DNA from: a virus
DNA: 64,000 nt
IMG/VR virus record: IMGVR_UViG_3300045970_000591
Coordinates: 1-64,000 of that record
Reading direction: 5' to 3' (one strand)
In this document: positions 754 to 16,389 of the stretch, one piece after another
How the letters are laid out: each line of letters starts with the position of its first letter
How positions within the stretch are numbered: the stretch's first letter is position 1
The notes under the pieces: generated by a model
Seen by the model: only the letters and a program-made list of their open reading frames with translations
Told to the model about the DNA's origin: nothing
Databases searched by the model: none
Position numbers and translations under genes: made by a program

Positions 754-817
754 AGCGTGAACTTAAAGTGCAACAAAGTGTAACACTGCACTAAATACAC
801 AAAAAATAGTTTATAAT
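754..817 (+). promoter_or_regulatory. 64-bp repeated promoter cassette, copy 1
   Basis: A 64-base block ending in TATAAT (812-817) is repeated without a mismatch at 4223-4286 and with several mismatches at 3200-3263. TATAAT is followed by 4 bases and then ACTTAGCAACAAA (822-834), a leader shared with 1987-1999 and 2545-2557. There is no good -35 hexamer, so activation may depend on the conserved upstream part. It precedes the gene starting at 849. Confidence 0.7.
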
Positions 818-848
818 GTTTACTTAGCAACAAACAAAGTAGCAAAAA

Positions 849-3199: not shown

Positions 3200-3263
3200 A
3201 GCGTGAACTTAAAGTGTAACAATATGTAATACAGCACAAAATACACAAAAAATAGTTTATAAT
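3200..3263 (+). promoter_or_regulatory. 64-bp repeated promoter cassette, copy 2
   Basis: This is a diverged copy of the blocks at 754 and 4223. It keeps the first 17 bases, the AATACACAAAAAATAG core and TTTATAAT. The distance from TATAAT to the ATG at 3316 is longer (52 bases) than in copy 3. Confidence 0.65.
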
Positions 3264-3315
3264 ACAAGCTACAGGCAAAAGCAATAACGCACAAGCTGTT
3301 AAAATGTAAAGCAAT

Positions 3316-3927
3316 ATGCACACATTAACATTAGCACAAGCGCAAAACGCAATAGCGTTGCACGCAAACAACACTGTTGTAACTGCACAACAAATACAAA
3401 ATATGCTGCAAAACGTAAGCGTTACGTTTGCACAAATTACTTACGTTACGCAAGTAGCGTTAGCAGCGCAGCACAAAGCGCAAAACATACAAAAAGTAAC
3501 AACTGCAAACGTAATACTGTGCAGCAACATTAAAGCACACACAAGCGTTTACGCAAACAAAGTAAAGCGTAGCGCAGCAGCTATTAGCAGCAACAATGCA
3601 CAAGCTGTAGCAGCGTTTACAGCGCAGCAAAACTACTTTACGCACACAGCAACGCATTGCATTGTGCAGCATACACAGCACGCAAACAAAATGTATTTGT
3701 ATGCTATTTACAACAACGCACAAAGCGTGTATATGCACAATAACGCTGTTGTAAGCAAACAACACGTTGCAGCATACTGCACAAAAAGCGCAGCAGCAAC
3801 ATTGTTGCAACAAAGCAACGTTGTTGTAAATAAAACACACAACATAGCGCACACTGTGCAAGTGCGTACTATTGCGTTAAGCAACATAGTAAGCATTAAA
3901 GCGCGTAAGCAGCTACTTACAGTGTAG
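3316..3927 (+). CDS. 203-aa protein with no Asp, Glu, Gly, Pro or Trp
   Basis: This ORF encodes a basic protein rich in Ala, Gln, Asn, Thr, Val and His. I see no family resemblance. Not one Asp, Glu, Gly, Pro or Trp occurs, because the DNA from 3275 to 3976 contains no GA, GG, CC or TC dinucleotide on either strand. Codon use still looks three-periodic (GCA/GCG for Ala, AAC for Asn, CAA for Gln), which favours a real gene. It lies between repeated promoter copy 2 and a 9-bp hairpin. With no acidic residue it could bind nucleic acid, but that is inference. Confidence 0.6.
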   Translation: MHTLTLAQAQNAIALHANNTVVTAQQIQNMLQNVSVTFAQITYVTQVALAAQHKAQNIQKVTTANVILCSNIKAHTSVYANKVKRSAAAISSNNAQAVAAFTAQQNYFTHTATHCIVQHTQHANKMYLYAIYNNAQSVYMHNNAVVSKQHVAAYCTKSAAATLLQQSNVVVNKTHNIAHTVQVRTIALSNIVSIKARKQLLTV

Positions 3928-3937
3928 CAAATAAACA

Positions 3938-3959
3938 ACTGTTGCAGCAATGCAACAGT
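3938..3959 (+). terminator. 9-bp hairpin with GCAA tetraloop
   Basis: ACTGTTGCA (3938-3946) and TGCAACAGT (3951-3959) form a perfect stem capped by GCAA, 11 bases after the stop codon. No U-tract follows. It is probably a 3'-end stabiliser or weak terminator. Confidence 0.55.
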
Positions 3960-4222
3960 GTGCAAGCGCAGCTAGTTCACGCTAGTTGCGCTATTTTTTT
4001 AACTAAAACAGCGCGACCAAATATTGCACACAAATATGAGACCTTGTTTTATATTTTTAAATTTTAAAATTAAATAGCGCGGTCAAATTTACTTTTTGTC
4101 GTGCGTTTTTGGGGGCAAAAACCATCCTAAAAATGCACGGTGGTTCGCGCTACAACTTTTGAGGACACATGTTCTTTGCAGCGCGATACCCGTGCGTGCT
4201 GTGTTAGCTTGCGTGCAAAAGT
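3960..4222. other. Intergenic repeats
   Basis: No gene is seen. The motif AGCGCG followed by AC or GT occurs repeatedly (near 4010, 4076 and 4168). CATGTTCTTTG at about 4150 recurs near 4924. The region is AT-rich with a run of Ts at 3993. Confidence 0.45.
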
Positions 4223-4286
4223 AGCGTGAACTTAAAGTGCAACAAAGTGTAACACTGCACTAAATACACAAAAAATAGTTTATAAT
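4223..4286 (+). promoter_or_regulatory. 64-bp repeated promoter cassette, copy 3
   Basis: This copy is identical over all 64 bases to the block at 754-817. TATAAT occupies 4281-4286 and the next ATG is at 4293, exactly where transcription should begin, so the downstream mRNA should be leaderless. Confidence 0.75.
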
Positions 4287-4292
4287 ACAACT

Positions 4293-4619
4293 ATGCAAAA
4301 CACTACACAGCAAATAACTTATACGCAGCACTGCAAAGTAAAGCACAAAAAGCACTTTAGCATTGCACAACGCAACGCACGCAATGCTATGTATGCTGCA
4401 CTGTATAGCGCAGCACAGCAAGCAGTAGCGCAGCAAGTAGCGCAAGCACTGCAAGCACTGTATTTTAAGCAGCGCGTTAATATTAACTACAACGCAAAAA
4501 GCATTAGCGTGCAACTGCAAAACGCAACAGCAACGCAAGCAGTGCAGTATATTGCACGCACGCACAACGCAAGCATTAAGCAAACACAAAACAACATATT
4601 GTTACACTTGTTTGCATAA
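4293..4619 (+). CDS. 108-aa protein with no Asp, Glu, Gly, Pro or Trp
   Basis: The product is basic and rich in Ala, Gln, Asn and Thr, like the 203-aa protein at 3316, though the two do not obviously align. GA, GG, TC and CC are absent from the DNA between 4229 and 4699, which removes all acidic residues, Gly, Pro and Trp. Promoter copy 3 ends 6 bases before the ATG, so translation is probably leaderless. GTTACAA-type hairpins follow the stop codon. Function is unknown. Confidence 0.6.
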   Translation: MQNTTQQITYTQHCKVKHKKHFSIAQRNARNAMYAALYSAAQQAVAQQVAQALQALYFKQRVNINYNAKSISVQLQNATATQAVQYIARTHNASIKQTQNNILLHLFA

Positions 4620-4733
4620 AGCAACAACTACAAGTTGTAACAACTGTTGCAACTTGTTACAACTGTAACAACTTGTAACTGTAACATTTTGTAACAGTTC
4701 GTGCGCGTTGTTGTATGCGTGCTACACTTTTGT
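4620..4733. repeat. Cluster of overlapping inverted repeats
   Basis: The segment is built from alternating GTAACAA/TTGTTAC and CAAGTTG/CAACTTG units. One example is the 7-bp stem 4631-4637/4650-4656. Several mutually exclusive hairpins can form. It resembles the sequence after the 2571 gene (2862-2920). Confidence 0.55.
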
Positions 4734-5114: not shown

Positions 5115-5200
5115 CTCCTATCTCTATAGGTCCCACCCTAAGCTGAAATTTTTCTCCTATCTCTATAGGTCCCACCCTATCTCTATAGGTCCCACCCTAA
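5115..5200. repeat. Direct repeats with an internal palindrome
   Basis: TATCTCTATAGGTCCCACCC occurs three times (from 5119, 5159 and 5179), the last two directly abutting, with a degenerate fourth copy after 5198. The first two copies extend upstream to TTTTCTCC. CCTAT and ATAGG around CTCT can pair. It lies between the 5016 promoter and the array promoter, so an operator or RNA leader element is possible. Confidence 0.7.
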
Positions 5201-5213
5201 CTCTATGCGTCCG

Positions 5214-5242
5214 TTGACTTCTAACGTAAGACCATATATACT
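5214..5242 (+). promoter_or_regulatory. Promoter of the paralog array, leaderless
   Basis: TTGACT (5214-5219), a 17-base spacer and TATACT (5237-5242) form a good sigma70-type promoter. The predicted first base is 5249, the A of the first array start codon. No Shine-Dalgarno sequence exists for that gene. Confidence 0.8.
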
Positions 5243-5248
5243 AACAGT

Positions 5249-5485
5249 ATGTCTACCGATTCTTATTCATATCCACATTCCAGTCATTTCTATCAGACGC
5301 TAGTCAGGCGTTATAAAAATGTCACGAATGATATGATGACTGAATCCCGCAATATGAAGATATGGTTGATTGCTAATGTGGTAGATCATGAATATGGTTG
5401 TTATTCAAACGGATTACTTATGGAAGTAGTTTGTTTCAAGAACCCAAAAGACTTGGTAGCCTTCAAGTTAAAGTTTGGAGTATAG
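5249..5485 (+). CDS. Array protein 1 (FKLKFG family)
   Basis: This 78-aa protein heads the array and ends DLVAFKLKFGV, the family signature. Members share a short N-terminal strand, a helix with a Trp, a variable middle, and a C-terminal strand, acidic turn, DAVAF and KLKFG. The N-terminal 40 residues here are unlike other members. Translation appears leaderless from the 5214 promoter. Function is unknown. Confidence 0.75.
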   Translation: MSTDSYSYPHSSHFYQTLVRRYKNVTNDMMTESRNMKIWLIANVVDHEYGCYSNGLLMEVVCFKNPKDLVAFKLKFGV

Positions 5486-5486
5486 T

Positions 5487-5672
5487 ATGGATTGGCCTAT
5501 TACTGTTTACATACCATATGACAACAAAACACTCAGTGTATTAGCATGGATGCACGCATATGTTGGTCAGGTAGGTGTTGATTGGGATTACATGCATATT
5601 GATAACATAAACTATATATGCTTTTCCAATGAGTTGGATCGTATGACTTGTAAGTTAAAGTTTGGAGTATAG
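5487..5672 (+). CDS. Array protein 2 (FKLKFG family)
   Basis: A 61-aa member ending CKLKFGV. It opens MDWPI, as does the next gene, and shares a W-x10-VDWDY pattern with it, so the two are recent duplicates. The ATG at 5487 is preceded by GGAG, formed by the end of the preceding gene's Gly-Val codons, at a normal ribosome-binding distance. A TTG at 5475 is inside the previous gene and is rejected as the start. Confidence 0.75.
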   Translation: MDWPITVYIPYDNKTLSVLAWMHAYVGQVGVDWDYMHIDNINYICFSNELDRMTCKLKFGV

Positions 5673-5673
5673 T

Positions 5674-5859
5674 ATGGATTGGCCTATTATAGTTAACATA
5701 TCCTATACACTTAACGCAGCTGATATACTCGACTGGTTGGAAGAGTGTGTAGGTGAAATAGATATTAGTTGGGATTGGCAACATATTAATAATAGAAACT
5801 ATGTATGCTTTGCCAGTGAAGAAGATCTATTAGCTTGTAAGTTAAAGTTTGGTATATAA
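5674..5859 (+). CDS. Array protein 3 (FKLKFG family)
   Basis: This 61-aa member is the sister of protein 2: same length, same MDWPI start, same CVG-x4-SWDW centre and the ending LLACKLKFGI. The ATG is again spaced 6 bases from a GGAG supplied by the preceding gene's codons. Cys replaces Phe of the FKLKFG core in both sisters. Confidence 0.75.
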   Translation: MDWPIIVNISYTLNAADILDWLEECVGEIDISWDWQHINNRNYVCFASEEDLLACKLKFGI

Positions 5860-6044
5860 TGGAATACTTGTTATTTGTAGATATTAGTATAATGATAGAA
5901 GCATTTCCGTGGTTGTTGGATAATGTGGGACCACTGGATGTAGATTGGCAGTTAGAGGATGCGCCACCGAAGTTCAAGAAGATATTTATATACTTTAATA
6001 AGGGTGAGGATGTGGTAGCATTCAAGTTAAAGTTTGGATTATAA
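5859..6044 (+). CDS. Array protein 4 (FKLKFG family)
   Basis: A 61-aa member whose ATG shares its A with the TAA of the previous gene. It carries the helix-Trp (PWLLDNVG), the VDW element and the ending DVVAFKLKFGL. The following 53 bases have no ORF, and a stretch there may be the remnant of a lost member. Confidence 0.75.
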   Translation: MEYLLFVDISIMIEAFPWLLDNVGPLDVDWQLEDAPPKFKKIFIYFNKGEDVVAFKLKFGL

Positions 6045-6097
6045 ACTTCAAGGTATGGATTTTCAAGACAGTAAGAAATTTTTTACAGGAATTTTTC

Positions 6098-6304
6098 ATG
6101 GTTAGTAACATGGGCACCTTATATGTTAGTATACCCACTGGGCGGGCCGAGGGCTGTTCGTTTTGGGCTAAGGAATATTGTCCTAGTTATATTACTTGTG
6201 ATTTACACATGGATGGATATAATACACATGATTCTACCAGGATTGATTACTTCTTTGGTGACGCGGAAGATGCTGTAGCGTTTAAACTAAAGTTTAGTGT
6301 ATGA
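6098..6304 (+). CDS. Array protein 5 (FKLKFG family)
   Basis: The 68-aa product ends DAVAFKLKFSV, with Ser in place of the usual Gly. It is one of the few members with an independent ribosome binding site (AGGA at 6087-6090). It restarts translation after the 53-base gap and overlaps the next gene by ATGA. Confidence 0.75.
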   Translation: MVSNMGTLYVSIPTGRAEGCSFWAKEYCPSYITCDLHMDGYNTHDSTRIDYFFGDAEDAVAFKLKFSV

Positions 6305-6483
6305 TACAAGTAACAATAAAAGAAAGAGTTACCTGGGTTGAACAGATAAGTTGGATTACAACAAACTGTACTGGTGCGAAAGACATGACAAACTGGACGA
6401 TGTGGTCTTTAGGTTTAGATGATATTCTTTATATGATGGAAGAGAATGATGCAGTGTATTTTAGACTAAAGTTTGGTGTATGA
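6301..6483 (+). CDS. Array protein 6 (FKLKFG family)
   Basis: A 60-aa member ending DAVYFRLKFGV. It carries a Trp-rich helix region (WVEQISW) and overlaps both neighbours by ATGA, so it is translationally coupled on both sides. The start MIQV is shared with the next gene. Confidence 0.75.
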   Translation: MIQVTIKERVTWVEQISWITTNCTGAKDMTNWTMWSLGLDDILYMMEENDAVYFRLKFGV

Positions 6484-6650
6484 TACAAGTAAATCTAGGT
6501 CATGGTGTGTCGAGATATTTTGAAATACTCGACTGGTTGAATAGTGAAGATATAGAGTACACGATTACAGGAAGTGATATTGATTGGCCATGTATTTTGG
6601 AAATGGAAGAGGTAGACGCTGTGGCATTAAAGATAAAGTTTGGATTATAG
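6480..6650 (+). CDS. Array protein 7 (FKLKFG family, ALKIKFGL subtype)
   Basis: A 56-aa member, among the shortest, ending DAVALKIKFGL. With the next gene it forms a two-gene unit that recurs at 8658-9025, where an equally short ALKIKFGL protein precedes a SIFNGLLF protein. The shared pattern NLG-x-G near the N terminus and ILDW/ILVW in the helix supports a block duplication. Confidence 0.75.
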   Translation: MIQVNLGHGVSRYFEILDWLNSEDIEYTITGSDIDWPCILEMEEVDAVALKIKFGL

Positions 6651-6651
6651 T

Positions 6652-6885
6652 ATGGTTATTGTTAATGTCCCACTAACGGAAAATATACAGTATGATGATA
6701 TGTGTGAATGGATAGAAAATAATATGGATTTAGTTTCTGTCTTGGCTGGGCCTTCTATAGTCACATATTACATTAATGGTAAGCCAGTGCCAGGGCGTGG
6801 CTGTAGTGGGAAGTCTATCTTTAATGGATTATTATTTGGTGATGAACAAGATGCAGTGTACTTTAAACTGAAGTTTGGAATATGA
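6652..6885 (+). CDS. Array protein 8 (FKLKFG family, SIFNGLLF subtype)
   Basis: The 77-aa product contains SIFNGLLF before DEQDAVYFKLKFGI. The closest relative by eye is array protein 19 (8825), which shares VNV, the SIFNGLLF block and DEQDAVYFKLKFG. The ATG at 6652 is 1 base after the previous stop; a TTG at 6640 is rejected as a start. Confidence 0.75.
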   Translation: MVIVNVPLTENIQYDDMCEWIENNMDLVSVLAGPSIVTYYINGKPVPGRGCSGKSIFNGLLFGDEQDAVYFKLKFGI

Positions 6886-7079
6886 CATACTTACATTTTA
6901 TGACAGGATGGGATGCTTATGTGGAAGCTGCGACGATAGATCGGAATATTATGTATAGCGTGTGGGTTGAACAGTTTGGAGCAAAAGTTGTTGATGTAGG
7001 GCTATTAAGACCTGTCGCAATGTTAGAGTTTCTAAACAAAGGCGATGCAGTGTATTTTAAACTAAAGTGTAGAACATGA
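6882..7079 (+). CDS. Array protein 9 (MTYL subtype)
   Basis: A 65-aa member of the MTYL-x3-TG subtype, which also includes genes at 7076, 7267, 7485 and 8479. It has WVEQFGAKVV in the centre and the ending DAVYFKLKCRT, where CRT replaces FG-x. It overlaps both neighbours by ATGA. Confidence 0.75.
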   Translation: MTYLHFMTGWDAYVEAATIDRNIMYSVWVEQFGAKVVDVGLLRPVAMLEFLNKGDAVYFKLKCRT

Positions 7080-7270
7080 CATACTTACCTTATATGACTG
7101 GATTTAATGATTACCACGGTGAAATGGAAAGAACAAGTGGTAAGTTCCTTGCATATAGAGACTGGGTTAAACAGTACGGTGGAGAAGTTGTTACGACGCA
7201 AACACTTGCTAGACTAGAGTTTGAAGATGAAGGAGACGCAGTGTATTTTAAACTAAAGTGTAGAACATGA
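7076..7270 (+). CDS. Array protein 10 (MTYL subtype)
   Basis: A 64-aa close relative of protein 9: MTYLPYMTG start, WVKQYGGEVV centre and identical DAVYFKLKCRT end. Near-identical DNA at both gene ends and a variable middle fit recent tandem duplication with divergence of the central loop. Confidence 0.75.
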   Translation: MTYLPYMTGFNDYHGEMERTSGKFLAYRDWVKQYGGEVVTTQTLARLEFEDEGDAVYFKLKCRT

Positions 7271-7488
7271 CATACTTACCTTATATGACTGGCCATAATG
7301 CTTATGCATCTATAAACGGAGGCCCGCTGACCGTCGCAGGCAGAGGATGGTTCCACCGAGATTGTTGGGTATGGTTAGATCTACGTGGAGGCAAAGTTAT
7401 TAATACAGATCTACCTATATCAGAATGGAAGATAGAGTTTAAAGATGATGCCGATGCAGTGTATTTTAAACTAAAGTATAGAACATGA
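7267..7488 (+). CDS. Array protein 11 (MTYL subtype)
   Basis: The 73-aa product repeats the MTYLPYMTG start and ends DAVYFKLKYRT. Its centre carries an extra Gly/Trp-rich insertion (residues 16-32) not present in protein 10, with RGGKVI as the core equivalent of YGGEVV. Confidence 0.75.
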   Translation: MTYLPYMTGHNAYASINGGPLTVAGRGWFHRDCWVWLDLRGGKVINTDLPISEWKIEFKDDADAVYFKLKYRT

Positions 7489-7697
7489 CATACTTACCGT
7501 ATCCATATGGTTGGAGTGATTATAGTAAGGAGTATCCTATGGCTGTGGTATCGGGAGGCGGCAAGCTATGTTACTGGCAATGGGTTGAACAATATGGAGG
7601 AAAGGTTGTTGACCAGGAATTACATGTTGTTAAATGGAGATTAGAGTTTAAGAACGATGAAGATGCGGTAGTGTTTAAACTAAAGTTTGGAAAATGA
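7485..7697 (+). CDS. Array protein 12 (MTYL subtype)
   Basis: A 70-aa member that starts MTYLPYPYG and has WVEQYGGKVV in the centre. It ends DAVVFKLKFGK, so it combines the MTYL start with the regular FG ending. It overlaps both neighbours by ATGA. Confidence 0.75.
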   Translation: MTYLPYPYGWSDYSKEYPMAVVSGGGKLCYWQWVEQYGGKVVDQELHVVKWRLEFKNDEDAVVFKLKFGK

Positions 7698-7906
7698 AAC
7701 ACATTTCTTTTAAACAGTCTGCCCTATATGGTAGAGTTTCTGAGTTTATAAGATGGAAAGAAGAATGTGGTGGTACAGTGGCTTATGCTTATGCATATAC
7801 TGAATATACCGGATATGTTTTTGATCCACCCGCCGGTACATTTGATGGGTTAGTATTTTCTAATGACGAAGACGCAGTAGCATTTAGATTAAAGTTTGGA
7901 ATATGA
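7694..7906 (+). CDS. Array protein 13 (LYG subtype)
   Basis: The 70-aa product contains LYGRVSEF, a counterpart of LYGKVSAV in the following gene, so these two are sisters. A Tyr/Ala-rich central insertion distinguishes it. The end is DAVAFRLKFGI. Confidence 0.75.
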   Translation: MKHISFKQSALYGRVSEFIRWKEECGGTVAYAYAYTEYTGYVFDPPAGTFDGLVFSNDEDAVAFRLKFGI

Positions 7907-8091
7907 CAGATATTATTTTTACACATGATAGGCTTTATGGTAAAGTTTCTGCCGTAGCAAACTGGATAGCAACCATTGAAAATAAGGTATATGCTGTCTA
8001 TGAGACACGAGGTAACAAGAGTATATTTAATGGATTACGATTTGTGGATGAAGCTGATGCAGTAGCATTTAGATTAAAGTTCGGAATATGA
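7903..8091 (+). CDS. Array protein 14 (LYG and SIFNG mosaic)
   Basis: A 62-aa member that looks like a mosaic. Its N-terminal half (LYGKVS) matches protein 13, while its SIFNGLRF segment matches proteins 8 and 19. The end is DAVAFRLKFGI. This suggests recombination between array members at the variable/conserved boundary. Confidence 0.75.
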   Translation: MTDIIFTHDRLYGKVSAVANWIATIENKVYAVYETRGNKSIFNGLRFVDEADAVAFRLKFGI

Positions 8092-8270
8092 CAAAAGTAA
8101 AATGGCCGATGAATGATAAGGTACCCGATTCTGTAGTATGCGATTGGTTGGAAGATCTAGTAGAACAATCTCCCGGCGAGTTGGTGTTTACATATGCTAC
8201 TGCCGAAACAACCTTATGCTTTGTAAGAGAAGTAGACGCAGTAGCATTTAGATTAAAGTTCGGAATATGA
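8088..8270 (+). CDS. Array protein 15 (FKLKFG family)
   Basis: This 60-aa protein has a basic N terminus (MTKVKW), the helix CDWLEDLVE and the ending DAVAFRLKFGI. It has no special subgroup signature. It is coupled to both neighbours by ATGA or TGA-ATG overlaps. Confidence 0.75.
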   Translation: MTKVKWPMNDKVPDSVVCDWLEDLVEQSPGELVFTYATAETTLCFVREVDAVAFRLKFGI

Positions 8271-8482
8271 GTACCATAGTAGAGATAGATTTACGAATCG
8301 ATAAATCTAAAGAATTAAATGGATTCGGCGTGTTAGATGTAGACCTCTACCTTAACATATTGGATTGGCTAATAAGGTATAAAATAGAATATACCCGAGT
8401 ACAAAATCGTGTTGCATGGGCGCCTGCATTTGAATTGGAAGATATTGACGCAGTAGCATTTAGATTAAAGTTTGGATTATGA
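8267..8482 (+). CDS. Array protein 16 (FKLKFG family)
   Basis: The 71-aa product contains ILDWLIRYKIEYT, similar to ILDWLNSEDIEYT in protein 7, and ends DAVAFRLKFGL. The start overlaps the previous stop in the arrangement ATGA. The N-terminal 20 residues are charged and unique. Confidence 0.75.
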   Translation: MSTIVEIDLRIDKSKELNGFGVLDVDLYLNILDWLIRYKIEYTRVQNRVAWAPAFELEDIDAVAFRLKFGL

Positions 8483-8661
8483 CATACTTATTATATATGA
8501 CCGGAATGAAGGGCTATCTTAGAGATCCTAAACACTACGTAGAGTGGCTTGAGGAATATGGGGCAAGAATTATTGATACACATTTATCTATAATACAATG
8601 GCGGATACAGTTTAAGGATGCGGCAGATGCAGTAGCATTTAGATTAAAGTTTGGAATATGA
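8479..8661 (+). CDS. Array protein 17 (MTYL subtype)
   Basis: A 60-aa member of the MTYL-x3-TG subtype placed away from the 6882-7697 cluster. It has WLEEYGARII in the centre and the ending DAVAFRLKFGI. The FRLKFGI ending is that of its local neighbours, which hints at exchange of 3' ends within the array. Confidence 0.75.
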   Translation: MTYLLYMTGMKGYLRDPKHYVEWLEEYGARIIDTHLSIIQWRIQFKDAADAVAFRLKFGI

Positions 8662-8828
8662 CAATAATAAACTTAGGTCCGGGGTATGTGGACAGCATGA
8701 CCTTTACTGATATATTGGTATGGTTAACAATGAACGATTTATATTATGAATTTAAAAATACGTCGGATTGCATTATATCGGTAGACGACGAAGATGCAGT
8801 TGCACTAAAAATAAAGTTTGGATTATGA
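8658..8828 (+). CDS. Array protein 18 (ALKIKFGL subtype)
   Basis: A 56-aa product of the same length and ending (DAVALKIKFGL) as protein 7. It also precedes a SIFNGLLF protein. The pair 8658/8825 is therefore a second copy of the block 6480/6652. Confidence 0.75.
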   Translation: MTIINLGPGYVDSMTFTDILVWLTMNDLYYEFKNTSDCIISVDDEDAVALKIKFGL

Positions 8829-9025
8829 TACCTATTATAGTTAATGTTAGAACAAACATTGTCTGGTACGTCTTAGCCGATATAGCCGAGTGGGTGGTTA
8901 ATAATCCGGATATTGTATCTGTGTGCCCTAATGATGGATCCCTGCCCGTAACATCTATCTTTAACGGATTATTATTTGCTGATGAACAAGATGCAGTGTA
9001 CTTTAAACTAAAGTTCGGATTATAG
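8825..9025 (+). CDS. Array protein 19 (SIFNGLLF subtype), end of first array block
   Basis: The 66-aa product ends DEQDAVYFKLKFGL and contains TSIFNGLLF, matching protein 8. The ATG at 8825 overlaps the previous TGA; an in-frame ATG at 8768 lies inside protein 18 and is rejected. A 9-bp inverted repeat follows the stop codon and closes the first half of the array. Confidence 0.75.
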   Translation: MIPIIVNVRTNIVWYVLADIAEWVVNNPDIVSVCPNDGSLPVTSIFNGLLFADEQDAVYFKLKFGL

Positions 9026-9029
9026 TTTA

Positions 9030-9091
9030 CGCGGTAAGTAAGATAGGTTATATGTGTATATAATAGGTGTGGAAAAATTTGGCTTACCGCG
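9030..9091. terminator. Inverted repeat closing the first array block
   Basis: CGCGGTAAG (9030-9038) pairs with CTTACCGCG (9083-9091) across a 44-base AT-rich loop. It lies between the last gene of the first array half and the end of the convergent 9117 gene. It may terminate in both directions, although no U-tract follows directly. Confidence 0.4.
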
Positions 9092-9116
9092 CTCTGCGCA
9101 CTGAAACCAAACCTGC

Positions 9117-10607
9117 CTAACCTACCTTAGGCTCGGTAATATTAGTGTATTCTAACCATACTATTTGATTCTGCTGTAGTTTATCAAGTATTTCTTCTGG
9201 TTTGGTTTTATCTTTTCTATATATCATTACTGCATATCTAAGCAGGTATTCCATTTCCGCATAAGCATTGTCGGCATCTGTTACATATTGTACCATTGCT
9301 GCTTCGCCTTGTTTAAATCGTGTCTTGAATAGATCTACATAATATAATGCTGCTTCACCGTCTTTGGCAATTTCAGATAATGCAAAAGATGGAATTTGTA
9401 GTTTGCATTTTCTAAATGCATTTATTAGGTTGCACATTTCATCTGTTTCCCAATCTTCTTCTGCATAAAAGGATTCAATAAGGGAGTTTTTGCAGACTTC
9501 AATCATTTCTTCTGTCAATGTATAACTATGCCCCCGCAATGTATATACTGATTTATAGTCGTGCCGTAATGCTGTAAGAATAGCCTTTTCACTAATACCT
9601 TCTGTAGAATAGCTAATATATTCAAACAATAATGAAAGCACGTCACCGGCATTATCGTCGGATCTATTACACCATGCTATTTGCACTGCTTCAGTAAGTG
9701 CTAATGGGTCCGTAGAAGAGGCTCCCGCTTGCAAAATTCCTTGTATTGTGTATATATTAAAGTTTGCGCAGGCCAATAGTACACCTTCGTTTATATAGCC
9801 ATTGTCTAAAAGATATAATGTGCGGCCGGGACTTTTTTCTATTTCATCTGCAACATCTTGCGGAGATATTTCTGTTCCTACAGCTAAAAACGGTTCATCA
9901 TCGTCATTATACATATCGGGGTGCAAAGAAAATATACCTTTTAGTTTTCTTGATTTATTTATGTTATTGGCCCATTCGACTACAGTGTTCGCAAACCACG
10001 GTGGTGCATTGCCGTATACTATACCATTTACTCCTAACGCAACATCTTTTCTACTATTAATAAATGGTTTTATTAATACTCGGGCAACAGGGCGCTCTAT
10101 ATTATTATCGTCTCTTTTTACAAGATAGGCAATGATCGTTCCTTCTCTCACATCAACTGCTACATATTTTTTATTTGAGCCTATGTTTATATTCATACAA
10201 GAGGACCAACCGCGGTTGGTACTCATTCCTGCTATATCATATGGGTGTCTACTTATGATAATTCTGTACTCTTTATTTTGCGTATTTGAGCCCGAGCGTG
10301 CCGGATCATTTGCGAACCGTTTTATTAAATCAGGATCGGTAATCAACTTTCCTATTCGTATTATTCTGCCTGTCTTTAGTGATTTTGCCAACCCCGCTGT
10401 GTAGTCGTGAATTTCATATCCCATTAACATAAGCTCTCGGTCTAAATATGGATCTGGTTTAATCTGTTTACGATCTTTATCAGGTGTAGGTAGCTCTATG
10501 CGATATTTCCCACCAAATATATCTTCATACTTAGTCTTATCCCAACCTTTCACATACTTTCTGTACTCGCTGGGTTTAAGTGCTTCTAATAGTTCATATA
10601 TTTTCAT
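9117..10607 (-). CDS. 496-aa phage protein of unknown function, late
   Basis: I do not recognise this protein. It has a globular N-terminal region with a conserved-looking block around residues 115-145 (SRHPYDIAGMST, GWSSCMN) and a helical, acidic C-terminal half with Leu/Ala-rich repeats. The block reads like the active or binding centre of an enzyme-like domain, but no catalytic motif is named with confidence. The gene interrupts the paralog array on the opposite strand. A late-type box GATAAATA ends 4 bases before the ATG, so the mRNA should be leaderless and late, unlike the early array genes. It is divergent from the 10657 gene. Confidence 0.75.
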   Translation of the reverse strand: MKIYELLEALKPSEYRKYVKGWDKTKYEDIFGGKYRIELPTPDKDRKQIKPDPYLDRELMLMGYEIHDYTAGLAKSLKTGRIIRIGKLITDPDLIKRFANDPARSGSNTQNKEYRIIISRHPYDIAGMSTNRGWSSCMNINIGSNKKYVAVDVREGTIIAYLVKRDDNNIERPVARVLIKPFINSRKDVALGVNGIVYGNAPPWFANTVVEWANNINKSRKLKGIFSLHPDMYNDDDEPFLAVGTEISPQDVADEIEKSPGRTLYLLDNGYINEGVLLACANFNIYTIQGILQAGASSTDPLALTEAVQIAWCNRSDDNAGDVLSLLFEYISYSTEGISEKAILTALRHDYKSVYTLRGHSYTLTEEMIEVCKNSLIESFYAEEDWETDEMCNLINAFRKCKLQIPSFALSEIAKDGEAALYYVDLFKTRFKQGEAAMVQYVTDADNAYAEMEYLLRYAVMIYRKDKTKPEEILDKLQQNQIVWLEYTNITEPKVG

Positions 10608-10611
10608 CTAC

Positions 10612-10619
10612 TATTTATC
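10612..10619 (-). promoter_or_regulatory. Late promoter GATAAATA for the 10607 gene
   Basis: GATAAATA on the minus strand is followed by GTAG and the ATG. This puts the expected transcription start within a base of the start codon. The motif differs from T4 TATAAATA only at the first base. Confidence 0.65.
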
Positions 10620-10642
10620 GACTTATTATATTTTAAATGAGT

Positions 10643-10650
10643 GATAAATA
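10643..10650 (+). promoter_or_regulatory. Late promoter GATAAATA for the 10657 gene
   Basis: GATAAATA lies 6 bases before the ATG at 10657, back to back with the minus-strand box at 10612-10619. The two flanking genes should be co-expressed late from leaderless transcripts. Confidence 0.65.
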
Positions 10651-10656
10651 TGTGTT

Positions 10657-11616
10657 ATGAACTTAAAAGAAATACTTACCGAACTTAGAAGTAACCCTAA
10701 GCAAAATCTTCAGAAGATCGCCGGTCACCAAGAAGCGATACAATTTTTAAAGAGTAAAGGATGCACAAGGTATCACGACAATGGATATGCTGTTAGCATG
10801 ACTTCATTGCCAAAGTTAGGTGTTAATCCTAAAAGTCCGTATAATACACCAATCGGTATATACTTTTATGATGCAGCTCATTATATTGAAAGAAAGGAAG
10901 ATGATCACTATTTAAACTTTCAAGATGGTGCAGCATACATACAAATATTTAAGTATAGGGATGATGCTGAAATTATAAACATAGACGAGGTAGATGTAGA
11001 CGAATACAACCGTTACATACAAATGCTCTTTAGTAGTACAGAAATACCTACGATACTTGGTATAAGCCAAAAACAGGTAACAGATGTATTGGTCAAAGCA
11101 ATGGCAGAGTCACATGCGGAGGCTCGTATTAAATCCTATGGTGGATATTTATGGTATGTATTAATGTCACTTAGTCAATCGAGGGAAATAGGATCACGCA
11201 AGAACGCCGGTGTTGCATCGCGTTCAGCGGTAATATGGAACAGATTGATCAGAATACTGAAAATAGATGTTATAATAGATTATGGATCGAGCATAATACA
11301 TGAGAACGAGCCTGACCAAGGTGTGGTGCTCAATCCACGGGCTATAGTGCTGGTCAATACTATAGCAAATACCACACCTAGAAAGAGGCCTCCTGTTATA
11401 CCGGCAAAGAAAGGTTCCGTGCCGGCGAATAAAAAGAGTGAAGGAACTATTCATTATGCGGCCAAGTTTGCGTTTTATGATCAACTCCAAGGGAAATACC
11501 AAACAGAAACTATTAAGGTTTATGCACTTAATAACAAAGACGCAAAGGATATAGCATTCAACTTACTCGGCATAGATGTCAAAGATCTTGTGTCGACTAA
11601 GGTTACCCCGATATAA
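10657..11616 (+). CDS. 319-aa phage protein of unknown function, late
   Basis: No family is named with confidence. Notable elements are PKLGVNPKSPYNTPIGIYFY around residues 52-71, which resembles a conserved loop of an enzyme domain, and IIHENEPDQGVVLNP around residues 215-229. A basic Pro/Lys linker (residues 239-258) separates a C-terminal domain. The gene faces away from the 9117 gene and shares the same kind of late promoter, so the two probably act together, perhaps as virion-associated proteins. That role is inference. Confidence 0.75.
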   Translation: MNLKEILTELRSNPKQNLQKIAGHQEAIQFLKSKGCTRYHDNGYAVSMTSLPKLGVNPKSPYNTPIGIYFYDAAHYIERKEDDHYLNFQDGAAYIQIFKYRDDAEIINIDEVDVDEYNRYIQMLFSSTEIPTILGISQKQVTDVLVKAMAESHAEARIKSYGGYLWYVLMSLSQSREIGSRKNAGVASRSAVIWNRLIRILKIDVIIDYGSSIIHENEPDQGVVLNPRAIVLVNTIANTTPRKRPPVIPAKKGSVPANKKSEGTIHYAAKFAFYDQLQGKYQTETIKVYALNNKDAKDIAFNLLGIDVKDLVSTKVTPI

Positions 11617-11627
11617 CTCTAACCTTA

Positions 11628-11656
11628 TTGACTTGTATCGTCATACAGTGTATAAT
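11628..11656 (+). promoter_or_regulatory. Promoter of the second array block
   Basis: TTGACT (11628-11633), a 17-base spacer and TATAAT (11651-11656) form a near-consensus sigma70-type promoter. The expected start is about 2 bases before the ATG at 11665, again essentially leaderless. Confidence 0.8.
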
Positions 11657-11664
11657 GTCTAAAT

Positions 11665-11910
11665 ATGATACATTCAACCTTAAACTTATCGCAAGACGTT
11701 AAAACATATCCTCTTAGGATGTTGGTATGGGAGTACCCGGAAGTATATAAGGCGGCAGAAGAATGGCTAACCAAGTATTGTACGATTGGGTATTTTAACT
11801 ATATACACGGTTTGTCACACATCAACGGTACCCCGTATGCAAGAGCAGTTAGTTTCGTTAATGAAACTGACTACTTGGTATTCAAACTTAAATTCCCGGA
11901 ACTATGTTGA
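11665..11910 (+). CDS. Array protein 20 (FKLKFG family)
   Basis: The 81-aa product heads the second block and ends DYLVFKLKFPELC, a variant of the signature with Pro replacing Gly and three extra residues. Like array protein 1 it is led by its own promoter and has no Shine-Dalgarno sequence. It overlaps the next gene by 7 bases. Confidence 0.72.
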   Translation: MIHSTLNLSQDVKTYPLRMLVWEYPEVYKAAEEWLTKYCTIGYFNYIHGLSHINGTPYARAVSFVNETDYLVFKLKFPELC

Positions 11911-12110
11911 ATATACGAGCTACCATAGATGATTATAAAATATCACTATGCTATAAACACCAGCTTGGCCCCGATAGGTGTGCTATCGTCGAAGAGTGGT
12001 TGGCAGAAAATGTAGGCGTTGAGAATGTGGATTGGCATTGGGAAAGATTCACTATTGCATTAGATAGTAAAGAAGATATGGTTGCTCTTAAACTAAAGTT
12101 TGGATTATGA
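11904..12110 (+). CDS. Array protein 21 (FKLKFG family)
   Basis: A 68-aa member with the full family pattern: EEWLAENVG helix, VDWHW element and DMVALKLKFGL end. It resembles proteins 3 and 4 of the first block in the centre. It overlaps the next gene by ATGA. Confidence 0.75.
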   Translation: MLNIRATIDDYKISLCYKHQLGPDRCAIVEEWLAENVGVENVDWHWERFTIALDSKEDMVALKLKFGL

Positions 12111-12277
12111 TTTTAAATATTGGAACACTTAAGGTCTCTGAGTGGGCGGCAGCTCAAAAATGGATGACAGATAATAATATTATGTCGTGGGAAGAATTCG
12201 ATAAATGGGATTGGCGATTTAATATTGAGATGAGTGAAGAAGATGCAATAGTATTTAAACTAAAGGTTGAACTATGA
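12107..12277 (+). CDS. Array protein 22 (FKLKFG family)
   Basis: A 56-aa member ending DAIVFKLKVEL, where VEL replaces FG-x. It keeps a Trp-rich centre (KWDWRF) and is coupled to both neighbours by ATGA. It was identified by reading the frame between genes 21 and 23. Confidence 0.72.
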   Translation: MILNIGTLKVSEWAAAQKWMTDNNIMSWEEFDKWDWRFNIEMSEEDAIVFKLKVEL

Positions 12278-12504
12278 TTTTTCCTATCGCGCCGTATTGG
12301 CTATCTATCGTAGATCATTATTATAAGCAGGGCGGCCGCGAGGATAAGACTATCTGGAAAATGTTGGAAGAAGATTATTATGCTAAACGGTCACATCGAT
12401 ATAAAGGCGACACACATCGTAACTATTTAACAATCGACGAGCCTGAAGATTTGGTTGCATTCAAACTAAAATTCGCAGAACAACGATGTGACTTAAATAT
12501 ATGA
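12274..12504 (+). CDS. Array protein 23 (PYWLS subtype)
   Basis: The 76-aa product and the next gene are sisters: both have PYWLSI near the N terminus, IW-x-MLE-x2-YYAK in the centre and DLVAF in the signature. This one ends KLKFAEQRCDLNI, a C-terminal extension of eight residues past the core. Confidence 0.74.
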   Translation: MIFPIAPYWLSIVDHYYKQGGREDKTIWKMLEEDYYAKRSHRYKGDTHRNYLTIDEPEDLVAFKLKFAEQRCDLNI

Positions 12505-12704
12505 TTATAGCAGTAGAGCCATATTGGTTGTCTATCTTAGCATATTATTATGATGTTAGTCTTATTAGCCGCGGTATATCTATTTGGGATATGTTAGAGA
12601 AAGAATACTATGCTAAAAAAGTTCTTAGAAAAGATGCGATTCATTTAGAGTTTAAAGAGAAAGAGGATTTAGTTGCATTTATTTTAAAGTTTGCTAAAGA
12701 ATAA
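12501..12704 (+). CDS. Array protein 24 (PYWLS subtype)
   Basis: A 67-aa sister of protein 23, ending DLVAFILKFAKE. Ile replaces Lys in the core. An 8-base gap separates it from the next gene, one of the few places in the block without overlap. Confidence 0.74.
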   Translation: MIIAVEPYWLSILAYYYDVSLISRGISIWDMLEKEYYAKKVLRKDAIHLEFKEKEDLVAFILKFAKE

Positions 12705-12712
12705 ACAGATAT

Positions 12713-12919
12713 ATGATTTATGTTCCTATACTTCAGCCTACTGATAACAACATAGTAGGGGCCATCTCTCGATTTTCTGAATATGCTAAGTGGTGTGATG
12801 AGGTGGCTGGTGTGGAAGATACAGATTGGCGGTGGATGCGTGGAGATCTGTATGGCAAGGGTATATACTTTAAAGACGAGCAGGTAGCCGTAATGTTTAA
12901 ACTAAAGTTTCCTGTATGA
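12713..12919 (+). CDS. Array protein 25 (FKLKFG family)
   Basis: This 68-aa member shows the helix-Trp (AKWCDEVAG), the TDWRW element and a degenerate end VAVMFKLKFPV. It overlaps the next gene by ATGA. No ribosome binding site is obvious, so re-initiation from the preceding gene is likely. Confidence 0.74.
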   Translation: MIYVPILQPTDNNIVGAISRFSEYAKWCDEVAGVEDTDWRWMRGDLYGKGIYFKDEQVAVMFKLKFPV

Positions 12920-13161
12920 TAACTATTCCGTATTTAGATAGGGCCGGTGTCTACGCCGGTGGTGAATACTATAGAAAGCACATACGAGGCTATTCCTGCC
13001 GTGAGTCAATACCGTCTTATCAGGAATGGATTAAAGAACAAGGCGGCAAGTTTGTGTCGGGATATAATAAAGAAACAAGGATAGGACACGAAAGCTGGTC
13101 GGCGTATATCGAGTTCGAGAGTGAAGAAGACGCGGTCGTGTTTAAGCTAAAATATGTATAG
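12916..13161 (+). CDS. Array protein 26 (FKLKFG family)
   Basis: An 81-aa member with WIKEQGGKFV in the centre, reminiscent of the MTYL subtype, and the ending DAVVFKLKYV, two residues shorter than usual. The next ATG lies inside its last codons. Confidence 0.74.
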   Translation: MITIPYLDRAGVYAGGEYYRKHIRGYSCRESIPSYQEWIKEQGGKFVSGYNKETRIGHESWSAYIEFESEEDAVVFKLKYV

Positions 13162-13321
13162 TATATCTGTTCCTTTTAGCAGCAATGCGGGATTCTACGT
13201 AGAGCTTGCTACTTGGCTGATTGAGCGAGAGGTAGCATGTAGGTGGAACGATAACCAGTATAAGATTATATTTGCTAATGAGGAAGACGCAGTAGCATTT
13301 AGATTGAAGTTTGGATTATGA
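13154..13321 (+). CDS. Array protein 27 (FKLKFG family)
   Basis: A 55-aa member, the shortest, starting inside the last codons of protein 26 (8-base overlap) and ending DAVAFRLKFGL. It reduces the family to its minimum: one strand, the helix ATWLIE, a short strand and the signature. Confidence 0.74.
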   Translation: MYSISVPFSSNAGFYVELATWLIEREVACRWNDNQYKIIFANEEDAVAFRLKFGL

Positions 13322-13560
13322 CATTAGTTGAATATGACCATAAAAAGATAAGGCAATATTTTATAAAGAATATTATGCCTAACTATCCTGCATGGGATCC
13401 GGACAAAGACGGAGAAGAACTACCTATGGTAAAATGGTTGAGAGATATAGGTGCTAAGTTTGTTGTTAAAGAAGTAAATGAGATGGGTGAAGCAACAAGC
13501 CATCAACTACAGTTCGAAGATGAGGCAGATGCAGTAGTATTTAAGTTAATGATTGGATGA
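13318..13560 (+). CDS. Array protein 28 (FKLKFG family)
   Basis: The 80-aa product has WLRDIGAKFV in the centre and ends DAVVFKLMIG, a degraded form of the signature. It is linked to the next ORF by ATGA. Confidence 0.72.
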   Translation: MTLVEYDHKKIRQYFIKNIMPNYPAWDPDKDGEELPMVKWLRDIGAKFVVKEVNEMGEATSHQLQFEDEADAVVFKLMIG

Positions 13561-13847
13561 ATATGAGTTTAACACCAACGACAGAGGAGCTCGACTCTTT
13601 TATTAAACAGTTTAATATACAGAACTTTTCTGTCGATATACCACACGAAGATTTTAGTTCTCACGGGTATTCCTATGCTGTTAATACTGGTAATGCAAGA
13701 GTCAAGATGGCAGCAACTATGCCAGATTTCTATCACCTCGTTAATATAGTAAGTCAAAGAAACGAAGAACAGATGATAAGAGATAGATCAGAAACAGTTC
13801 GTAAGGCGTACGAAGAATATGTGATTTTACTGAAACTATCGAGATGA
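13557..13847 (+). CDS. 96-aa protein in the array lacking the signature
   Basis: This ORF is embedded in the array and coupled by ATGA on both sides, but it does not end in DAVAFKLKFG. Its C terminus reads YVILLKLSR, so it could be a strongly diverged member. A start at 13563 is possible. The N-terminal half has a helical segment (residues 5-20); function is unknown. Confidence 0.65.
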   Translation: MNMSLTPTTEELDSFIKQFNIQNFSVDIPHEDFSSHGYSYAVNTGNARVKMAATMPDFYHLVNIVSQRNEEQMIRDRSETVRKAYEEYVILLKLSR

Positions 13848-14290
13848 TTTCAAAATATTATCTTCAGTTTTACAACGATGATAGAACCTACTATGCACTG
13901 ACGCAGGTAGGCAAATGGCCGTTCAGCATTATACAAGAGGCACACAAGGCTTGGGTGGAAGACCATACAGGGAATATTAGAGAGATTAAGAACAGAGACG
14001 GGCCACACAACGGAAATATAACTCAGGAAGAGTATAAGACGCTTAAAGAAATAAGTCAGAGGATAGATATGATTTCAATAATACAGCGAACAAACGGAAC
14101 AGTTCAGTTGAACTTTCCATACAGTAAATATGAGAATAATATACCCGATGGTATGGTAGAATGGTTGATTGAAAATACAGAACAGAAATGGACATACGGT
14201 AAATGGCAAATGGGTGATGAGGCTAAACGGATTGGAATAGAAATAACACAAGAAGATTTGGTAGCACTTAAACTAAAGTTTTCATTATGA
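13844..14290 (+). CDS. 148-aa double-length array protein
   Basis: The C-terminal 72 residues are a normal array member: MVEWLIENTEQKW helix and DLVALKLKFSL end. The N-terminal 75 residues are extra, beginning MISKYYLQFY. The start of the second half (MISIIQ) looks like a former start codon, so this may be a fusion of a signature-less protein with an array member. The next gene begins MKYYLKL, loosely like this N terminus. Confidence 0.7.
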   Translation: MISKYYLQFYNDDRTYYALTQVGKWPFSIIQEAHKAWVEDHTGNIREIKNRDGPHNGNITQEEYKTLKEISQRIDMISIIQRTNGTVQLNFPYSKYENNIPDGMVEWLIENTEQKWTYGKWQMGDEAKRIGIEITQEDLVALKLKFSL

Positions 14291-14535
14291 AATATTATCT
14301 GAAGTTGGCTGAACACCTATTTATGTGTCCTCAGTGCTGGCAAGGGTTTGTTAAATCACTCGATCACGTAGAGTCGCCCGAGTTGGACTTCGACGGTGGT
14401 TATTCAACAGCCTTTATTAATAAACACCTTACTCCGCACCACGCAGAATTTACTGACCTGGTTGAAGATATAAGTGCTTATGTGACATTCGAAACAGAAG
14501 CAGATGCTATAGTATTTAAGTTAAAGTATGGTTGA
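14287..14535 (+). CDS. Array protein 31 (FKLKFG family)
   Basis: An 82-aa member ending DAIVFKLKYG. It has a CPQCW motif near residue 15, the only CxxC pair in the array. It overlaps the preceding gene by ATGA and the next by 8 bases. Confidence 0.73.
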   Translation: MKYYLKLAEHLFMCPQCWQGFVKSLDHVESPELDFDGGYSTAFINKHLTPHHAEFTDLVEDISAYVTFETEADAIVFKLKYG

Positions 14536-14743
14536 TATTCCTATCTCTCGACATAACATTCACACTGTGCATCAGTGGTGTGAAAAGCATATATCGCCGA
14601 GGTCGTATTGGATGCATAACAAGATTGGTGGGCCGGGGTGGATATTACATTCTATGCCCCGTAATGAACAGGACTGGCGTGTTGCGTTTAATGATGACCA
14701 TGATGCTATTGTTTTTAAGCTATCAGTCCTGTTAGATGATTAG
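14528..14743 (+). CDS. Array protein 32, last member
   Basis: The 71-aa product ends DAIVFKLSVLLDD, a decayed signature. It has a HQWCEKH helix in place of the usual helix-Trp and a Trp-rich centre. It closes the array; the next gene has a different promoter type. Confidence 0.72.
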   Translation: MVDIPISRHNIHTVHQWCEKHISPRSYWMHNKIGGPGWILHSMPRNEQDWRVAFNDDHDAIVFKLSVLLDD

Positions 14744-15867: not shown

Positions 15868-16389
15868 ATGAGTAGAGATGTAAGTATTGATGTCGAAAGC
15901 GACGGACCTTGCCCCGGTATGCACTCAATGATTTCCTTTGGGGCAGTTATAGTAGAGGCAGGGTTGCAGAGAACATTTTATGCAGAACTAAAACCTATAT
16001 CCCAACTATGGGTTCCGGAGGCATTAGCAGTAAGTGGCTTCACACGGGAACAAACAATGAAGTTTAAGGATCCGAGAGATGCTATGCAAAACTTCCTAAT
16101 ATGGCTTACTAAAAATGTTGAGGGGCGCCCAGTAGGTTGGTCAGATAATAACGGGTTCGACATGGGGTTCATGAACTATTATTTCTGGCAACAACTCGGC
16201 CATAATCCGTTTGGGTGGAGTTCTGCTAACATCGGTTCTTATTACAAAGGATTAAGAAAAGATACATATGCAACTTTTAAACATTTACGCGACACAAAGC
16301 ATACACACAATCCAGTGGATGATGCTAAAGGAAATGCAGAAGCATTACTAAAAATGTTCGATATGATGAAGAACGGAAATGTCTACTGA
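15868..16389 (+). CDS. DnaQ-like 3'-5' exonuclease
   Basis: The 173-aa product carries the DEDDh exonuclease motifs. Exo I is DVESDG with Asp8 and Glu10. Exo II is around NNGFDMGFMNYY. Exo III is the C-terminal H-x3-PVDDAKGNAEAL, with the catalytic His and Asp. The length suits single-domain RNase T/oligoribonuclease-type enzymes that remove nucleotides from 3' ends of DNA or RNA. The specific substrate cannot be told. It overlaps the next gene by 11 bases. Confidence 0.85.
   Translation: MSRDVSIDVESDGPCPGMHSMISFGAVIVEAGLQRTFYAELKPISQLWVPEALAVSGFTREQTMKFKDPRDAMQNFLIWLTKNVEGRPVGWSDNNGFDMGFMNYYFWQQLGHNPFGWSSANIGSYYKGLRKDTYATFKHLRDTKHTHNPVDDAKGNAEALLKMFDMMKNGNVY

What the first reader, a model, noticed from the sequence alone, without database searches (positions are those of the whole stretch)
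5249..14743. Tandem array of 31 paralogous small proteins sharing a C-terminal DAVAFKLKFG core
Thirty-one ORFs of 55-148 aa lie head to tail on one strand and end in variants of [DE]-x-A-V-x-F-[KR]-L-K-F-G. Most are linked by ATGA overlaps. They share a strand, a helix with a conserved Trp, a variable middle (often with a DW element) and a C-terminal strand-acidic turn-helix core. Such an expansion of a single small fold in a phage is unusual. A conserved core with a variable middle suggests a scaffold that presents different surfaces, for example to different host targets or defence proteins. The binding role is inference; the architecture is directly visible.
Basis: partly seen in the sequence, partly recalled or inferred. 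Interest (0 to 1): 0.92.

Follow-up and report, generated by a model that had tools for sequence, protein, structure and literature searches.

The report
Jumbo-phage arrays of diversified small proteins
A giant bacterial virus carries a run of 31 small, related but highly varied proteins; the same unnamed protein family turns out to be copied dozens of times across other giant phages, including cultured ones, and looks like a fast-changing kit of binding proteins used early in infection.

Summary
Confirmed and larger than described. The window is half of a 123-kb fragment of an uncultured T4-related jumbo phage. All 31 ORFs are one family: a profile from either half-array finds the other half with no false hit in 64 kb. 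AlphaFold2 gives a confident beta-alpha-beta-beta-alpha fold, repeated for an independent subfamily. No supported match in Pfam, PHROGs, PADLOC or PDB; structural matches are only unnamed phage proteins. The array is interrupted by two unrelated genes, so it is two operons, each first gene 7-9 nt after a sigma70-like promoter. Relatives carry arrays at the same site, next to the same exonuclease gene, with different repertoires: array orthologues 27-61% identical to the window's, exonuclease 74-82%. Relatives of 360-385 kb hold 28-43 members genome-wide; cultured Sinorhizobium phage Phosso at least 32, Agrobacterium Atu_ph07 about 11, Pseudomonas PA5oct 4, all unrecognised. Phage 121Q has none. 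DNA repeats concentrate in the 3' ends, suggesting recombination-driven shuffling. Best reading: an early-expressed arsenal of small binders (host takeover or counter-defence), organised like polyimmunity loci; the targets are inference. In passing: conserved DNA islands without any GA, TC, GG or CC lie just upstream of the arrays.

The parts
5249..9025 (+). Array block 1: 19 family genes (5249-5485, 5487-5672, 5674-5859, 5859-6044, 6098-6304, 6301-6483, 6480-6650, 6652-6885, 6882-7079, 7076-7270, 7267-7488, 7485-7697, 7694-7906, 7903-8091, 8088-8270, 8267-8482, 8479-8661, 8658-8828, 8825-9025)
11665..14743 (+). Array block 2: 12 family genes (11665-11910, 11904-12110, 12107-12277, 12274-12504, 12501-12704, 12713-12919, 12916-13161, 13154-13321, 13318-13560, 13844-14290, 14287-14535, 14528-14743)
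5214..5242 (+). Sigma70-like promoter TTGACT-17-TATACT (10/12); the ATG of gene 1 starts 7 nt after its -10 box, so a leaderless or nearly leaderless first gene
11628..11656 (+). Sigma70-like promoter TTGACT-17-TATAAT (11/12); the ATG of gene 20 starts 9 nt after its -10 box
5121..5197 (+). Three exact copies of TCTCTATAGGTCCCACCC (5121, 5160, 5180) between the upstream genes and promoter 1; possible operator; found nowhere else in the 123-kb record with up to 3 mismatches
9117..10607 (-). Unrelated interrupting gene, 496 aa, matches phrog_17056 (unknown function)
10657..11616 (+). Unrelated interrupting gene, 319 aa, no family match
13557..13847 (+). ORF of 96 aa inside block 2 with 4-nt overlaps but no core; not counted as a member
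6814..6883 (+). 70-nt 3' segment of gene 8, 93% identical to 8954-9023 of gene 19, and 74% to 8020-8089 of gene 14 whose N-terminal part is unrelated to gene 8: sign of segmental exchange
15868..16389 (+). Flanking exonuclease gene (RNase_T, PF00929) used as the synteny anchor in relatives; not part of the array

Best explanation
The locus is an early-expressed operon pair encoding a repertoire of small, mostly acidic, single-domain binding proteins of one new family (beta-alpha-beta-beta-alpha, ferredoxin-like sandwich). The C-terminal helix and first helix form the constant scaffold; the N-terminal loop and the segment between helix 1 and the hairpin vary. Shown: the family, the predicted fold, conserved position with changing content in relatives, genome-wide expansion in several jumbo phages, 3'-end DNA homology blocks with mosaic copies, and faster protein evolution than the neighbouring gene. 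Inferred: transcription by host RNA polymerase soon after DNA entry (promoters), diversification by recombination between the 3' homology blocks (unequal crossover and gene conversion adding, losing and shuffling whole genes), and function, each member binding and blocking a different host factor, most likely defence effectors or other host proteins that differ between host strains, so that the phage carries a hedged set of inhibitors.
For: One family; fold with pLDDT 90.6 and, for an independent subfamily, 89.7 with the same element order, profiles related at 95% probability, E 2.8e-8. Syntenic arrays of different content upstream of the exonuclease in L136, L137, L138, L139, L140, L141, L143, L145 and in the 385-kb G003. 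Reciprocal best hits to the window's members 27-61% identical against 74-82% for the exonuclease. dN/dS about 0.18-0.9 between tandem copies and 0.18-0.7 for most L136/L137 pairs against about 0.06 for the exonuclease (rough, short genes). 18-22 copies of a 48-66-nt 3' element at mostly 167-260-nt spacing and mosaic gene 14. Sigma70-like promoters 7-9 nt before both blocks, and 9 to 11 of 12 matches near array starts in L136, L137, L140 and L145. Mean charge -3.4 and aromatic-rich composition. Members in PA5oct carry no virion mass-spectrometry note, though their neighbours do. The single-copy subfamily sits beside genes whose sequences look like queE, mazG, a HIT protein, a phosphoribosyltransferase and a 5'-3' exonuclease (my reading of the sequences), not tail or head genes.
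Against: No member matches any known anti-defence or inhibitor protein; PADLOC, Pfam, PHROGs and PDB give nothing. No expression, binding or phenotype data exist. Promoter matches over the region are barely above the shuffled expectation (62 against 53, sd 7.6), so only the two placed at the block starts carry weight. dN/dS stays below 1, so positive selection is not shown. Part of the 3' conservation is at the nucleotide level (AAG 23/26 against 39% background), so recent exchange or a translation signal adds to protein constraint. An Atu_ph07 member (gp038) lies in a gene cluster rich in virion proteins.
Confidence: 0.5

Rival explanations
1. Nucleic-acid binders: RRM- or ferredoxin-like regulators, each recognising a different RNA or DNA, used for phage gene control.
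For: Weak, non-significant Foldseek hits of the second model to RRM and ribosomal proteins (E 0.2 and above); the element order resembles a truncated RRM.
Against: First model gives no such hits. Proteins are acidic on average and no RNP-type motif is conserved.
Confidence: 0.15
2. Virion-associated or injected accessory proteins, for example internal head proteins diversified between strains.
For: Array sits beside tail genes; Atu_ph07 gp038 lies within CDS 31-76, a cluster in which 29 proteins were found in virions (PMC6102473).
Against: None of the PA5oct members bears the virion mass-spectrometry note that many neighbours carry. No leader peptide. Opposite strand to the tail cluster and sigma70-like promoters.
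Confidence: 0.13
3. Polyimmunity or superinfection exclusion: the proteins neutralise toxins of competing phages, plasmids or neighbouring bacteria rather than host defences.
For: Organisation matches homogeneous polyimmunity loci: tandem distant paralogues, polycistronic, no toxin gene alongside, content varying between relatives (PMC3482391; PMC9484751).
Against: No similarity to any immunity superfamily in Pfam; no toxin partner known.
Confidence: 0.12
4. Mostly dispensable genetic noise: an array kept and amplified by recombination between short repeats, a nursery of genes with few functional members.
For: Strong 3' DNA repeats, position-specific codon bias, large differences in copy number between relatives.
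Against: All 31 frames are open, pN is below pS in all tested pairs, and the family persists at the same site and in at least three cultured jumbo-phage lineages.
Confidence: 0.1

Closest known systems
Homogeneous polyimmunity loci (SUKH and others; Zhang et al. 2012, PMC3482391)
   Same: Tandem array of distantly related small paralogues, one direction, no toxin gene alongside, content differs even between close relatives.
   Different: Different, unnamed family; in lytic jumbo phages; many arrays per genome; no immunity function shown.
EsaG and TipC type VII immunity gene strings (PMC9484751)
   Same: Short blocks of high similarity shared by all copies, with recombination between the blocks driving gain and loss.
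   Different: Unrelated proteins; bacterial; each has a known toxin partner.
Zinc-ribbon expansion of Bacillus phage G (about 35 copies; PMC7824862)
   Same: Lineage-specific expansion of one tiny protein fold in a jumbo phage, function unproven.
   Different: Different fold; here syntenic arrays with repertoire turnover recur in several lineages.
Unnamed BFVD proteins of 'uncultured Caudovirales phage' (A0A6J5LU01, A0A6J5KTI1, A0A6J7WDI9 and others)
   Same: Same predicted fold and probably the same family (Foldseek probability 0.97-1.00 for most of the top 17; 12-28% identity).
   Different: No name, function or family in the databases; E-values only around 1e-3 to 1e-1.

Membership tests
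Homogeneous polyimmunity locus | Tandem array dominated by one type of distantly related paralogue | tested here: met
Homogeneous polyimmunity locus | Genes in one direction, polycistronic | tested here: met
   4-nt overlaps and one promoter per block; transcript itself not seen
Homogeneous polyimmunity locus | Number and type of genes vary between close relatives | tested here: met
Homogeneous polyimmunity locus | Proteins belong to a known immunity superfamily (SUKH, SuFu, Imm) | tested here: not met
   no supported Pfam match for 95 members
Homogeneous polyimmunity locus | Members neutralise toxins | not testable with these tools
   needs experiment
Known anti-phage defence or counter-defence families | Profile match | tested here: not met
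   PADLOC gives only one-off chance hits (ZorC, E 0.004, 1 of 95); PHROGs likewise. No dedicated anti-defence library was available
RRM / ferredoxin-like fold proteins | Significant structural match to a solved RRM or ferredoxin-like domain | tested here: not met
   best E 0.76 and 0.12; element order similar but last strand missing
Superfamily with the single-copy FGLPGDRY proteins of other aquatic phages | Profile-profile match and same fold | tested here: met

The most novel reading that the evidence does not exclude
A phage-borne repertoire system: one scaffold, expanded to dozens of paralogues per genome and reshuffled by recombination between built-in 3' homology blocks, giving each jumbo phage its own library of inhibitors against host defences, comparable in logic to an antigen-receptor or polyimmunity repertoire.
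Probability: 0.35. Interest if true: 0.92.

Novelty: new variant of a known kind. Interest (0 to 1): 0.76.

Why it matters
A large share of jumbo-phage genes are reported as unique (304 of 643 protein ORFs in Sinorhizobium phage AP-J-162, 390 of 714 in Atu_ph07). Part of that dark matter in relatives such as Phosso and Atu_ph07 is here one expanded family that earlier annotation did not recognise because only a short C-terminal signature is conserved. If the members are inhibitors of host proteins, the arrays are ready-made libraries of small natural binders and a map of bacterial targets. The cultured phage Phosso on Sinorhizobium meliloti makes the question testable now.

Tried and rejected
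Nucleotide-level artefact (the conserved tail being only a ribosome-binding or coupling signal): partly true, codon bias is strong at K64 and GGA, but tail conservation also holds in members without 4-nt overlaps and in Phosso with different wording, pN is below pS, and the fold is predicted with confidence. Bacterial origin: genome-contig scan with the FGLPGDRY subfamily found none. Iterating with all loci let the FGLPGDRY subfamily dominate the profile, so a clade profile was used. tblastn with single members finds nothing in cultured phages; only the profile does. TATAAATA late promoters are rare in the window (3 against 10 expected) and not informative. A 7-deazaguanine link for the dinucleotide-free islands was tested: no TGT/DpdA match in the phages. 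Literature: papers on Atu_ph07 and AP-J-162 do not mention paralogy. Counts per genome are lower bounds and depend on the profile (Phosso 48 at E <= 0.1 with A3, 32 at E <= 0.003 with reversed-sequence decoys at zero).
Full report
What was checked. The window is bases 1-64000 of a 123,382-base IMG/VR virus record. It carries T4-type structural genes; the major capsid protein is about 95-96% identical to many uncultured contigs, including ones of 360-385 kb, and 76% to PA5oct and Paride-like Pseudomonas jumbo phages. So the record is a fragment of an uncultured jumbo phage.

The array. They form two blocks, 5249-9025 and 11665-14743, split by two unrelated genes, one on the opposite strand. One more ORF (13557-13847) lies within block 2 without the core. 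A profile built from block 1 finds all 12 genes of block 2, and the reverse, with no other hit in six frames of 64 kb. When the core is cut off, 3 of 12 are still found at E <= 0.01 against 4 of 600 shuffled sequences, so the upstream part is homologous but much diverged. No further member lies in the remaining 59 kb of the record.

Fold. AlphaFold2 with a 95-row alignment (window and relatives) gives pLDDT 90.6 and pTM 0.76 with beta-alpha-beta-beta-alpha. A distant subfamily marked by FGLPGDRY, from other aquatic phages and with its own 50-row alignment, gives pLDDT 89.7 and the same order of elements; the two profiles match with 95% probability and E 2.8e-8. No solved structure matches. The nearest predicted viral structures are unnamed proteins of uncultured Caudovirales phages. 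Ninety-five members scanned against Pfam, PHROGs and PADLOC give only one-off chance hits. NCBIfam was not tested.

Relatives. Anchoring on the exonuclease gene 15868-16389, contigs L136, L137, L138, L139, L140, L141, L143 and L145 carry 3 to 22 detectable members just upstream, on the same strand; the 385-kb G003 has 25 at 246-253 kb beside its exonuclease copy. L144 has a different set of small ORFs there that look like another paralogous family, and L146, L147 and L148 have unrelated genes, so the site itself is variable. Reciprocal best hits between the window and other arrays number 1-9 per pair and are 27-61% identical, while the exonuclease is 74-82%. Genome-wide, 28, 39 and 43 members are found in three contigs of 360-385 kb, in many clusters.

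Cultured phages. With the profile, Sinorhizobium phage Phosso has 48 matches at E <= 0.1 (32 at E <= 0.003 with zero hits among reversed decoys and zero in 121Q), Agrobacterium phage Atu_ph07 11 and Pseudomonas phage PA5oct 4; Escherichia 121Q, an Erwinia and a Vibrio jumbo phage have none. An alignment-free test agrees: F[KR][LIV] occurs in the last 16 residues of 8.2% of Phosso small ORFs against 1.3% in the first 16, and of 0.4% in 121Q. Nearly all these genes are annotated as hypothetical. The papers on Atu_ph07 and AP-J-162 that I could search do not mention paralogues.

Evolution. Inside the window 48-66-nt segments covering the gene 3' ends recur 18-22 times, mostly 167-260 nt apart; gene 8 and gene 19 share 70 nt at 93%, gene 14 shares the same 3' part at about 74% but not the N-terminal part, and repeats of 55-90 nt span gene junctions. 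That is what unequal crossover and gene conversion between 3' blocks would leave. Approximate dN/dS is about 0.18-0.9 between tandem copies and 0.18-0.7 for most L136/L137 orthologues, against about 0.06 for the exonuclease. Position-specific codon bias at the tail (AAG 23 of 26, background 39%) shows nucleotide-level conservation in addition.

Expression. Block 1 starts 7 nt and block 2 starts 9 nt after the -10 box of TTGACT-17-TATACT and TTGACT-17-TATAAT. Similar sites, 9 to 11 matches of 12, lie near the array starts of L136, L137, L140 and L145. This suggests early transcription by the host polymerase and leaderless first genes; it is a consensus match, not a measurement, and the total number of promoter-like sites in the region is close to chance.

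Function. The proteins are small, mostly acidic (mean charge -3.4), rich in aromatic residues, without catalytic signatures that I could see, variable between relatives at a fixed site, and apparently early. The single-copy FGLPGDRY subfamily neighbours metabolic genes rather than structural ones (gene identities read from sequence, not tested). The best reading is a repertoire of inhibitors or adaptors against host factors. The organisation equals that of homogeneous polyimmunity loci and of EsaG strings, but a defining feature, membership of a known immunity superfamily, was tested and not met, so I do not file it there. It may work like one.

Limits. All functional steps are inference. Member counts are lower bounds. 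Starts of single genes are uncertain. Supplementary virion tables could not be read.

Noticed in passing
window 3275-3977 (703 nt), 4229-4699 (471 nt), 760-929 (170 nt); L137 2620-2968, 3175-3399, 3596-4090; L145 1196-1541; L136 5607-5775: DNA islands with no GA, TC, GG or CC at all, on both strands, through coding and non-coding DNA: every C is preceded by a purine and every G followed by a pyrimidine. Apart from overlapping copies of the window itself, all runs of 150 nt or more in the 4.29 Mb fetched lie just upstream of these arrays in L136, L137 and L145. The encoded 203-aa protein (3316-3927) is conserved: 68% identity in L145, 44.5% in L137, and 40% in G002, whose copy has normal dinucleotides, so the gene was rewritten under a DNA-level constraint. 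No TGT/DpdA gene found. Deserves its own study: escape from a GR/YC-directed nuclease, modification or deaminase is possible.
   Followed up: partly
window 750-820, 3205-3265, 4228-4290: Near-identical promoter blocks (AACTTAAAGTGCAACAAAGTGTAACACTGCACTAAATACACAAAAAATAGTTTATAAT) upstream of three small genes.
   Followed up: no
window 5121-5197: Three exact copies of TCTCTATAGGTCCCACCC just before the array promoter and nowhere else in the 123 kb.
   Followed up: partly
L144 262-4170: At the same site a relative carries a run of small head-to-tail ORFs that look like a different paralogous family, with repeated N-terminal motifs such as NMKIK...LK.
   Followed up: no
L146 7-5090: Genes that by sequence look like a glutamate synthase small subunit, serine hydroxymethyltransferase and a succinate dehydrogenase flavoprotein lie directly upstream of the phage exonuclease; captured host genes or a chimeric contig.
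   Followed up: no
window 9117-10607 and 10657-11616: Both genes interrupting the array begin with MKIYELLEAL / MNLKEILTEL, reminiscent of T4 internal-head-protein leader peptides (from memory, untested).
   Followed up: no
window 1-64000: TATAAATA, the T4 late promoter core, is under-represented (3 against 10 expected), so late genes seem to use another signal.
   Followed up: no
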